From positions 1 through 5,683 of the forward strand of contig JAUXAH010000135.1 in assembly GCA_030614945.1 (NCBI GenBank): a stretch of 5,683 bases of DNA, given 5' to 3'. Source of the DNA: Phycisphaerae bacterium (GTDB lineage: Bacteria > Planctomycetota > Phycisphaerae > Sedimentisphaerales > SG8-4). The notes below the pieces were generated by a model. The model saw nothing but the letters and a program-made list of their open reading frames with translations. It had not been told where the DNA came from and did not search any database. Below, piece after piece: positions 1,531 to 5,582 of the stretch (position 1 is the stretch's first letter; each line of letters starts with the position of its first letter). Made by a program: the position numbers and the translations under genes.

Positions 1531-1550
1531 AATCCCGCTTGCGCGGGAAT
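1531..1550. repeat. GC-rich hairpin in the gap before rnfC
   Basis: TCCCGC (1533-1538) pairs with GCGGGA (1543-1548) across a TTGC loop. The outer A1531/T1550 also pairs after one mismatch. The sequence resembles the widespread short dispersed repeat of the ATTCCCGC...GCGGGAAT kind found between genes in many bacterial genomes. No T-run follows directly, so it does not look like an intrinsic terminator, and it lies inside the presumed transcript 27 bases before the rnfC ATG. Confidence 0.55.
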
Positions 1551-1576: not shown

Positions 1577-3013
1577 ATGAGAATTGATACTAAAGGCAGA
1601 TTTACTTTTACGGGCGGAACCCACCCTCCGGAAAGCAAAGCGCTTACCAGTGAAAGCAAGATACAGTCTTTCCCTGCCGTCAAACAAGTTGCAATAATGC
1701 TCAGCCAGCATACCGGTGCTGTTTGCCGGTCTCTGACCAGAAAAGGAAACACGGTGCAGGCGGGTCAAAAGATCGGCGACTCGGATGCATTTGTGTCGGC
1801 ACCGGTTCATTCTCCCATCACCGGCAAAGTAAAAGAAATCGCCCTGCAGTCGCACCCGGTTTTAGGGCGAAGCCCGGCAATAGTTATAGATGCGTTACCC
1901 CACTATCCGCCAAAGCGGCCGGACTTTAAGTTAAAGGATGATTTCGATGAAAACAGCTATTCAGCGGAACAGATATGCGATGCCGTCCGTCAGGCGGGTA
2001 TCGTCGGTATGGGTGGCGCCGGGTTCCCGACGAGGGTAAAGATAGAACCAAACCCGCGATTGCCCAAAGAGACATTGATAATCAACGGATGTGAGTGCTG
2101 CCCGTATATCACCTGCGACTATCGTATTATGCTTGAGTGGACGAACCAAATTGTTGCGGGGATTAAGCTCGCCAGAAGAGCGTCCGGCTGCTCCAAGGTC
2201 TTTATCGGCATCGAAGATAACAAGCCGGAAGCGATAGAGGCGATGAACGCAGCGTTTCACCCCGTTAGAAATTCTATAAGTGGGGAACATCCTACAAAAG
2301 GGAAATTTTCTAACGGGGTAAAAACTTACGCAAAAAGAGACGGCATCAAAGTTGTGCCGGTCAAAACAAAATATCCACCAGGGGGTGAAAGACAGCTTAT
2401 AAAAGCGATTCTAAAAAAAGATGTCCCCACAGGTGGAATTCCGCCGATGATTGGTGTGGTGGTTCTTAACGTTGCCACTGTCGCGGCGATAGCCGAAGCG
2501 GTCGTTTATGATTCGCCGCTGACCCACAGGGTCGTAACCGTTACCGGAGAAGGCATTGCAAATCCCGGCAATTTCTACGTTCCGATAGGAACGCCGGTTG
2601 CCGAGCTTATCGAATTCTGTGGAGGATTGACCGAGGAAGCGGTAAAGGTCATTCTTGGCGGGCCGATGATGGGAATAGCAATCGCCGATTTGACAACGCC
2701 TGTTACAAAAACCACCGGCGCAGTAACCGTATTGACAAAAAAACAAATCGGCGCAGCCAAATTCGCAGGGCGCCAAACGCCTTGTATTCGCTGCGGCAGA
2801 TGTCTTGAAGTTTGTCCCGAGCATTTGAACCCGACGAAAATCGCCCATGCGGTAAAAAATAATCTTTTGGACGTAGCAGAAAGCTATTATATCAATGCGT
2901 GTACGGAGTGCGGCTGCTGCAGTTACGTCTGCCCGGCCAATATAGAGCTGACAGGATATATCAAGACAGGCAAAACGCTTCTTGCCGGGCAAAAGGAAAA
3001 GATGCCGGAATAG
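1577..3013 (+). CDS. rnfC: Rnf complex subunit C (NADH/FMN and 2x[4Fe-4S] subunit)
   Basis: RnfC is the soluble peripheral subunit that exchanges electrons with NAD(H). Counting 478 residues from the ATG at 1577 (an in-frame TTG at 1571 adds two), the N-terminus FTGGTHPPESK matches the RnfC N-terminal domain. A biotinyl-lipoyl-like segment SAPVHSPITGKV (about 74-85) follows. The glycine-rich GMGGAGFPTRVK (144-155) and NGCECCPYITCD (170-181) form the NADH/FMN region shared with NuoF, and TKYPPGGERQLIKAI lies at about 264-278. Two ferredoxin-type sites close the protein: CIRCGRCLEVCP (Cys403, 406, 409, 413) and CTECGCCSYVCP (Cys442, 445, 448, 452). These clusters separate it from NqrA. Two oddities: about 22 extra residues (about 228-249) are encoded by a palindromic element, and the usual CECEP reads CECCP. 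The ribosome binding site is weak. Confidence 0.97.
   Translation: MRIDTKGRFTFTGGTHPPESKALTSESKIQSFPAVKQVAIMLSQHTGAVCRSLTRKGNTVQAGQKIGDSDAFVSAPVHSPITGKVKEIALQSHPVLGRSPAIVIDALPHYPPKRPDFKLKDDFDENSYSAEQICDAVRQAGIVGMGGAGFPTRVKIEPNPRLPKETLIINGCECCPYITCDYRIMLEWTNQIVAGIKLARRASGCSKVFIGIEDNKPEAIEAMNAAFHPVRNSISGEHPTKGKFSNGVKTYAKRDGIKVVPVKTKYPPGGERQLIKAILKKDVPTGGIPPMIGVVVLNVATVAAIAEAVVYDSPLTHRVVTVTGEGIANPGNFYVPIGTPVAELIEFCGGLTEEAVKVILGGPMMGIAIADLTTPVTKTTGAVTVLTKKQIGAAKFAGRQTPCIRCGRCLEVCPEHLNPTKIAHAVKNNLLDVAESYYINACTECGCCSYVCPANIELTGYIKTGKTLLAGQKEKMPE
2255..2323. repeat. Palindromic element inserted in frame within rnfC
   Basis: A 13-base perfect inverted repeat, ACCCCGTTAGAAA (2259-2271) and TTTCTAACGGGGT (2307-2319), is extended by one mismatch and three further A-T pairs (2255-2257 with 2321-2323). 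The centre contains a smaller imperfect hairpin, roughly GTGGGGA (2280-2286) with TCCTAC (2290-2295). The element is read through in frame and encodes HPVRN at one end and SNGVK at the other. In RnfC proteins the flanking parts (EDNKPEAIEAM and GIKVVPVKTKYPPGGE) normally lie close together, so the extra residues correspond to the element. This resembles in principle the coding-region palindromic elements of Rickettsia. Confidence 0.8.
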
Positions 3014-5482: not shown

Positions 5483-5521
5483 AAATCAAAGTGACATATA
5501 AAAATGCAAAAAGAAGATGTC

Positions 5522-5582
5522 ATTGCGAGCCCGAACAAAGTGAGGGCGTGGCAATCTCTGACCGGTGAATAGTTGAGATTGT
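5522..5582. repeat. Compound inverted repeat (CATTGCGAG-type dispersed repeat) between rnfE and rnfA
   Basis: ATTGC (5522-5526) pairs with GCAAT (5551-5555), and inside it GCCC (5529-5532) pairs with GGGC (5544-5547). The same right arm, CAATCTC (5552-5558), can instead pair with GAGATTG (5575-5581), so two alternative hairpins compete for one arm. The opening resembles the common intergenic repeat of the TCATTGCGAG...GCAATCTC kind seen in many genomes, including those of Planctomycetota and Deltaproteobacteria. It fills much of the 139-base gap. No T-run follows it. Confidence 0.65.

What the first reader, a model, noticed from the sequence alone, without database searches (positions are those of the whole stretch)
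2255..2323. Palindromic element spliced in frame into rnfC, adding about 22 residues to the protein
A 13-base perfect inverted repeat (17 bases per arm with one mismatch) with a nested hairpin lies inside the coding sequence and is translated as HPVRN...SNGVK. It falls between EDNKPEAIEAM and the KVVPVKTKYPPGGE segment, which are close together in ordinary RnfC, so it looks like a mobile palindrome that landed in a tolerated surface loop without breaking the frame. This is comparable in principle to Rickettsia coding palindromic elements, but in an essential-type bioenergetic protein of a different lineage. If the element recurs in other genes of this genome, it may be an unnamed protein-invading repeat family.
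Basis: partly seen in the sequence, partly recalled or inferred. Interest (0 to 1): 0.72.

Follow-up and report, generated by a model that had tools for sequence, protein, structure and literature searches.

The report
Mobile hairpin DNA inside RnfC
A tiny mobile piece of DNA has landed inside an energy-metabolism gene and is read as 21 extra amino acids; it belongs to a large, apparently unnamed family that also sits inside other proteins in many groups of uncultured bacteria, and whose gene-carrying members hold one small DNA-cutting enzyme.

Summary
Window 2260-2318 is a 59-bp element, CCCCGTTAGAAA-N35-TTTCTAACGGGG, in frame in rnfC; with one 4-bp target copy it adds 63 nt (21 residues). 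Five of the best 120 RnfC homologs carry it; a relative 93-95% identical in DNA lacks it.
It is a miniature inverted-repeat transposable element. Its ends occur in at least 112 stretches from about ten phylum-level groups. Of 133 distinct insertions, 86 have identical 4-mers on both sides, consensus YNNR. In genes 36 of 38 insertions keep the frame, against 23 of 62 between genes; 33 of those 36 are open throughout. It works like Rickettsia palindromic elements, across phyla.
Likely partner: units of about 270-290 bp with such ends whose only gene is a GIY-YIG nuclease (17 of 20 places in 384 Omnitrophota genomes), 9 of 21 with exact 4-bp duplications. Three GIY-YIG units have other ends, and one of these shares its ends with a short palindrome in its own genome. 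That the nuclease moves the elements is inferred; a close relative with 93 arms has no small GIY-YIG gene.

The parts
1577..3013 (+). rnfC, 478 aa, host gene of the insertion (followed by rnfD, rnfG and an Rnf-Nqr membrane subunit, rnfE by order)
2260..2318 (+). 59-bp element CCCCGTTAGAAA-N35-TTTCTAACGGGG
   Evidence: same ends in at least 112 stretches of other genomes
2260..2271 (+). left terminal inverted repeat CCCCGTTAGAAA
2307..2318 (+). right terminal inverted repeat TTTCTAACGGGG
2256..2259 (+). left target 4-mer TTCA (YNNR); presumed diverged copy of the target, TGAA in relatives L133 and L129
2319..2322 (+). right target 4-mer TAAA (YNNR); presumed diverged copy of the target, TGAA in relatives L133 and L129
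2280..2295 (+). nested hairpin GTGGGGAACATCCTAC inside the element
2258..2320 (+). 63 nt read as the 21 extra residues 228-248, HPVRNSISGEHPTKGKFSNGV

Best explanation
Window 2260-2318 is a non-autonomous miniature inverted-repeat transposable element that inserted into a YNNR 4-mer of rnfC. It duplicated those 4 bases and so added 59+4=63 nt in frame (duplication shown for the family; at this copy the two 4-mers have diverged). The 12-bp ends are free of stop codons in two of three frames (xPVRN...SNGV and xPLEI...FLTG), so an element of length 2 mod 3 can be carried as extra residues. Selection on the host protein leaves mainly in-frame, open copies inside genes (shown statistically). The likely autonomous partner is a unit of about 270-290 bp with such ends and a 4-bp target duplication whose single gene is a GIY-YIG nuclease of about 86 aa; its last codons are the terminal repeat and its stop is often supplied by the target 4-mer (structure shown). 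Inferred: that nuclease, Slx1-like in fold, cuts at the repeat ends or their hairpins and makes a 4-nt staggered cut at YNNR, host repair fills in the gaps, and the short elements move in trans.
For: Homologous site empty in relatives. Same ends in at least 112 stretches. Exact 4-bp duplication in 86 of 133 insertions, 0 at 5 bp, cross-shuffle mean 18 and maximum 32. Frame kept in 36 of 38 genic against 23 of 62 intergenic sites, Fisher p 3e-9; 33 of 36 open, phases 27/7/2, the last being the stop-bearing phase. Element inside a matched Pfam domain in 4 of 20 ORFs scanned. GIY-YIG units: 17 of 20 places, 4 of 5, 1 of 2; 9 of 21 exact duplications, shuffle mean 1.6, maximum 6; median dN/dS 0.15. 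Other ends: L270 (TCCTGTTAGACCTC, TGAA), L315 (CCCCGCCCTTCCT, TTCA), L298 (TCCCGCCCCTC, one mismatch, TGAG); the L315 ends also bound a 46-bp palindrome with TGAA/TGAA in the same genome. Fold: confident model (pLDDT 90.6) matching UPF0213 and the branched-DNA nuclease Slx1.
Against: At the window copy the flanking 4-mers differ (TTCA, TAAA; relatives TGAA), so the duplication is not seen directly there. G001 holds 93 exact arms but only one GIY-YIG match, in a 468-aa UvrC-sized frame. Short elements of 60-262 bp show no internal similarity to the GIY-YIG units (59 tested). Only 3 of 70 GIY-YIG loci from host genomes carried the CCCCGTTAGARA ends, and 12 of 21 GIY-YIG units lack an exact duplication. 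In the Tsy transposon a GIY-YIG nuclease aids transposition but is not essential; a tyrosine recombinase does the work (PMC10293859 passages). GIY-YIG enzymes are not known to join strands (recalled). The insert is patchy on the RnfC tree: 4 changes for 5 carriers, and 31 of 500 shuffled labels do as well.
Confidence: 0.72

Rival explanations
1. The short elements are true MITEs, but an unseen classical transposase moves them; the GIY-YIG gene is a passenger or accessory that uses the same ends.
For: G001 has many copies and no small GIY-YIG gene in its draft; no internal similarity between short elements and GIY-YIG units; in Tsy transposons a GIY-YIG nuclease is a helpful but dispensable accessory (PMC10293859 passages); precise ends plus a fixed target duplication are typical of DDE transposases (recalled).
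Against: A scan of the loci then held for inverted arm pairs 75-5000 bp apart (1 mismatch per arm) found nothing longer than 281 bp, and among the arms listed for G001, G009, G015 and G022 (the last two lists cut) the pairs from 300 bp to 5 kb are a 445-bp composite and one 2.7-kb pair whose ORFs, read by eye only, show no transposase. Pairs 8-15 kb apart were not examined. IS1380 (PF13701) matched in 7 of 30 host genomes; its 15 loci hold one single exact arm (L147) and no arm pair. GIY-YIG recurs as the only gene with other end sequences.
Confidence: 0.28
2. The palindrome is a REP-type element moved by a Y1 (HUH, RAYT) transposase.
For: Y1_Tnp (PF01797) matched in 26 of 30 host genomes; short palindromes are typical of REPs (PMC3733652, passages).
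Against: A 4-bp target duplication is not expected of IS200/IS605-like insertion (recalled); no exact arm lies in any of the 30 Y1 loci fetched, of 121 matches in all; Y1_Tnp also rings in 5 of 14 control genomes.
Confidence: 0.04
3. The hairpin is a resident feature of RnfC or of its mRNA kept for function, not a mobile insert.
For: Near-identical insert peptide in five RnfC proteins, two of them only 81-82% identical to the window protein.
Against: Only 5 of the best 120 homologs carry it; the same ends lie in unrelated proteins and between genes; no Rfam match in 2100-2500.
Confidence: 0.03

Closest known systems
Rickettsia palindromic elements (RPE)
   Same: Palindromic repeat found between genes and in frame inside conserved protein genes, read as extra residues (PMC2229807 section 9; PMC10969869 passages).
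   Different: RPEs are described there as 105-146 or about 150 bp, in Rickettsia; the copies here run from 29 bp upward (29-72 bp, whose pattern capped the length; others to 268 bp), lie in many phyla, have fixed 12-bp ends and a 4-bp YNNR duplication, and have gene-bearing relatives. No sequence relation was tested.
Bacterial MITEs
   Same: Terminal inverted repeats, target duplication, no gene of their own, variable interior, a larger unit with such ends.
   Different: The larger unit carries no known transposase class that I found, only a GIY-YIG nuclease; elements reach down to 29 bp, with one of 23 bp for other ends.
REP elements with RAYT (Y1) transposases
   Same: Short dispersed palindromes in bacterial chromosomes, some inside genes (PMC3733652 passages).
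   Different: Here there is a 4-bp target duplication, and no exact arm in 30 fetched Y1 loci.
GIY-YIG nucleases in mobile elements: homing endonucleases, Penelope-like elements, Tsy, a casposon
   Same: A GIY-YIG nuclease tied to mobility; the closest solved relative is UPF0213 1zg2, then Slx1 and I-TevI by fold.
   Different: Those carry an intron, intein, reverse transcriptase, tyrosine recombinases or Cas1 besides (PMC5718144, PMC10293859, PMC4046053 passages). Here the GIY-YIG gene is alone in a 270-290-bp unit with inverted ends and target duplications at many sites.

Membership tests
MITE | terminal inverted repeats | tested here: met
   12-bp perfect ends
MITE | target-site duplication | tested here: met
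   for the family: 86 of 133; at the window copy the two 4-mers have diverged
MITE | no transposase gene of its own, dispersed copies | tested here: met
   59 bp; dispersed copies
MITE | ends shared with an autonomous element | tested here: inconclusive
   ends (often the CCCCGTTAGAGA variant) and duplication shared with GIY-YIG units, but autonomy of those units is not shown
Rickettsia palindromic elements | in-frame palindromic insert in conserved protein genes | tested here: met
Rickettsia palindromic elements | sequence of a named RPE family in Rickettsia | not tested
   no RPE sequence was fetched; the listed hosts are other phyla, so it is called RPE-like, not an RPE
REP/RAYT | palindrome flanks or lies near a Y1 transposase gene | tested here: not met
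   0 of 30 fetched Y1 loci (121 matches in all) hold an exact arm
IS1380 (piggyBac-like) | PF13701 transposase bounded by the same ends | tested here: not met
   7 of 30 genomes have PF13701; no arm pair in its 15 loci
GIY-YIG nuclease | PF01541 match and conserved GIY-YIG core residues | tested here: met
   each of the 120 listed homologs (of 2610) carries PF01541; Y3, Y5, Y16, G18, R24, E62 and N76 invariant in 27 rows; fold matches UPF0213 and Slx1
GIY-YIG transposon (proposed) | the nuclease is required for mobility | not testable with these tools
   needs a mobility assay

The most novel reading that the evidence does not exclude
The family is a new class of DNA transposon whose only protein is an 86-aa, Slx1-like GIY-YIG nuclease: a self-mobilising unit of about 279 bp with 12-bp ends and 4-bp YNNR target duplications, perhaps the smallest autonomous TIR element known. 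It comes in several end-sequence subfamilies with matching miniature derivatives, spreads across phyla, and makes new protein segments by inserting in frame.
Probability: 0.5. Interest if true: 0.95.

Novelty: new variant of a known kind. Interest (0 to 1): 0.85.

Why it matters
Protein-invading palindromes are described from Rickettsia in the texts I read. Here a family with defined ends and a target duplication does the same in Planctomycetota, Omnitrophota, Patescibacteria, Nitrospirota, Desulfobacterota-type and other genomes, and the frame statistics show selection acting on it. This makes it testable how mobile DNA adds segments to working proteins. If the 279-bp GIY-YIG units prove autonomous, a transposon can run on a single small nuclease outside the known transposase classes. 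Annotators also gain: many small GIY-YIG proteins end in ...RFLSLTG, which in the units read here is the terminal repeat in frame.

Tried and rejected
Own-genome search: no genome is held for the window, so relatives were used. IS1380 as partner: 7 of 30 host genomes, no arm pairs. Y1/RAYT: 26 of 30 genomes, no exact arm in the 30 loci fetched of 121 matches. A 2.7-kb arm pair in G015 (L331): ORFs read by eye, none looks like a transposase; taken as two unrelated arms. Internal deletion of GIY-YIG units as origin of the short elements: no internal similarity in 59 elements. RnfC structure: poor model, not used for the loop claim. Viral contigs: one hit, L001, which looks like a terminator; none for a pattern with 14-nt arms or for the GIY-YIG size class. 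Phages: only a 20-nt match of E 1 in two records of one phage. Plasmids: none. The first tree label was contaminated by a loose motif; the count was redone with the five true carriers, and those five were checked again by segment length. A first coding filter kept 10 GIY-YIG ORFs because it rejected upstream stops; one search used 14.

Full report
What is there. The window carries rnfC (1577-3013), rnfD, rnfG and an Rnf-Nqr membrane subunit (rnfE by order) on the plus strand. Inside rnfC, 2260-2318 reads CCCCGTTAGAAA-N35-TTTCTAACGGGG. One of 300 Markov sequences held a perfect 13-bp inverted repeat of this spacing, and the RNA fold has z -5.85. The insert is residues 228-248, HPVRNSISGEHPTKGKFSNGV.

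It is an insertion. Of the best 120 RnfC homologs (7999 in all), 5 carry the segment, the window protein among them: 117 could be anchored on both sides, 5 with 46 residues between the anchors and 112 with 21-29; of the other three, P0035 lacks it by eye, and P0043 and P0094 were not anchored but are 458 and 455 aa long. In the alignment of 30 chosen homologs it is 5 of 30. In eight rnfC loci from genomes that carry the family, aligned at DNA level, none has it, including L133 (G001), 94.8% and 93.0% identical upstream and downstream, where the site reads TGAA. Two RnfC sequences of known structure, 7zc6_C and 9eri_C, have a gap there. On the tree of 120 the five carriers need 4 changes, at least 2 forced by well-supported branches; 31 of 500 shuffled labels need as few.

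It belongs to a dispersed family. My tally from the record titles: Omnitrophota 37, Planctomycetota 21, Deltaproteobacteria-type 18, Patescibacteria 15, Nitrospirota 10, Nitrospinota 3, Elusimicrobiota 3, and one each of Proteobacteria, WOR-3, Clostridia, Aerophobetes and an unnamed bacterium. G001 has 93 exact single arms with 0 for the reversed-pattern control; G009 has 51 with 1. IMG/VR gave one hit, which looks like a terminator.

It transposes. Of 133 distinct insertions (window not included), 86 have identical 4-mers on both sides, 3 match at 3 bp and 0 at 5 bp; cross-paired flanks give a mean of 18 (maximum 32) and offset controls a mean of 1.3. In the left copies the first base is a pyrimidine in 130 of 133 and the fourth a purine in 128 of 133. 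TTTA and TAAA lead. At the window copy the 4-mers are TTCA and TAAA, both YNNR but not identical.

It invades reading frames. For 154 distinct insertions (window not included) the empty site was rebuilt in a script; 54 were dropped because they had under 700 nt of flank or a spanning ORF of 80-199 aa. Where an ORF of 200 aa or more spans the site, 36 of 38 elements have length+4 divisible by three; where no spanning ORF reaches 80 aa, 23 of 62 do (Fisher p 3e-9; other cut-offs gave 40 of 43, 32 of 34 and 28 of 30 genic). Of the 36, 33 are open through the element: 27 lie in the PVR[NK]...SNG phase, 7 in the PLE...FLTG phase and 2 in the stop-bearing phase. I scanned 20 of 29 such ORFs (from G001, G007 and G009) against Pfam: 17 match a family, and in 4 the element lies inside a matched domain: AIRS_C (L243), UvrD_C (L233), Radical_SAM (L235), PQQ_2 (L237). 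In RnfC it lies inside the Complex1_51K match. In four prepilin-like proteins of G001 it sits just before the TL[VI]ELLVVIAI segment.

Gene-bearing relatives. Two larger elements, L052:3676-3956 (TTTA on both sides) and L058:4300-4578, encode a GIY-YIG nuclease. PF01541 itself is uninformative: 32 of 32 host genomes and 12 of 14 controls have it. The informative search is by ends and length, a size class chosen after seeing those two. In 384 Omnitrophota genomes, 20 places in 15 genomes fit CCCCGTTAGARA-N238-268-TYTCTAACGGGG, with 0 for the reversed pattern. Seventeen of the 20 read as GIY-YIG, intact or decayed (15 loci read in full, five places judged from the 80 printed bases); G047:C42, G041:C60 and G041:C95 do not. 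In 145 genomes of the phylum of G032 (Patescibacteria) 4 of 5 places do (L348 judged from the printed bases). In 148 genomes of G001's order 1 of 2 does (L345). Most of these units have the end variant CCCCGTTAGAGA. Of 21 GIY-YIG units (size-class places without GIY-YIG left out), 9 have exact 4-bp duplications (shuffled mean 1.6, maximum 6 in 2000) and 12 match at 3 or more positions. Fourteen ORFs give a median dN/dS of 0.15 over the 11 usable pairs of 91. Four equal-length proteins from four phyla are 65-78% identical. Of the best 120 of 2610 homologs of one of them, 115 carry LTG or SNG after residue 75, as the terminal repeat reads in frame; since the query has that tail, this count is biased upward. 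In many units the codon after ..LTG is a stop made with the target 4-mer. The model of one such protein (P0127) is confident (pLDDT 90.6); Foldseek puts UPF0213 1zg2 first (E 4e-4), then Slx1 structures (E 0.008-0.04, probability 1.00) and I-TevI (E 0.06). Slx1 cuts branched DNA (entry title of 6sei), which would suit a hairpin-forming element (inference).

A test with other ends. Among 70 small GIY-YIG ORFs from host genomes, 7 have an inverted repeat with an exact 4-bp duplication, against 0-2 when right flanks are swapped (20 shuffles). Three are tight (265-283 bp) with YNNR targets: L270, L298 (one mismatch in the repeat), L315. The other four span 329-465 bp; only L266 (CGCG) fits YNNR, and I take them as chance or other repeats. 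In G014 the core of the L270 ends occurs only at that unit, with no short copy. In G031 the L315 ends occur also as a 46-bp palindrome flanked by TGAA and TGAA (reversed-pattern control 1 hit), and in G004 a 23-bp palindrome with these ends is flanked by TTTA and TTTA. So one further end sequence pairs a GIY-YIG unit with short elements, and one does not.

Limits. G001 has no small GIY-YIG gene in its draft. Short elements share no interior with GIY-YIG units. No assay links nuclease and movement. After first drafting this report I read passages of PMC10293859: in Tsy transposons a GIY-YIG nuclease sits beside tyrosine recombinases and helps but is not essential. I therefore lowered the novel case from 0.55 to 0.50 and raised the passenger rival from 0.25 to 0.28. 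Literature: no held paper contains either 12-mer. Searches joining GIY-YIG with inverted repeats (572 papers, 20 listed), Omnitrophota (1), target site duplication (12), MITEs (3) or insertion sequences (3) showed no bacterial GIY-YIG-only element in titles or abstract beginnings; neither did searches on coding palindromes (listings only). Passages read in PMC3627910, PMC5718144, PMC12455944, PMC10293859 and PMC4046053 describe none. RPE facts come from PMC2229807 section 9 and PMC10969869 passages; PMC3733652 was read by passages.

Noticed in passing
window 5519-5558: GTCATTGCGAG...CGTGGCAATCTC looks like a second, unrelated dispersed repeat; GTCATTGCGAG occurs 36 times in 21 of 360 held loci.
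   Followed up: partly
L187, L222, L234, L241 (G001): Four prepilin-like genes carry the element just before the TL[VI]ELLVVIAI segment, reading TPLE...FLTGF; perhaps a favoured or ancestral insertion site.
   Followed up: no
L270, L298, L315: GIY-YIG genes bounded by other inverted ends with 4-bp duplications, hinting at several end-sequence subfamilies.
   Followed up: partly
L356:269-291 (G004): A 23-bp palindrome flanked by TTTA on both sides, the shortest candidate element seen.
   Followed up: no
window 1532-1550: ATCCCGCTTGCGCGGGAAT inverted repeat just upstream of rnfC; not found exactly in the 360 held loci.
   Followed up: partly
L001:2101-2148: The only viral-contig match: the palindrome is flanked by A and T runs, like a terminator rather than an insertion.
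   Followed up: no
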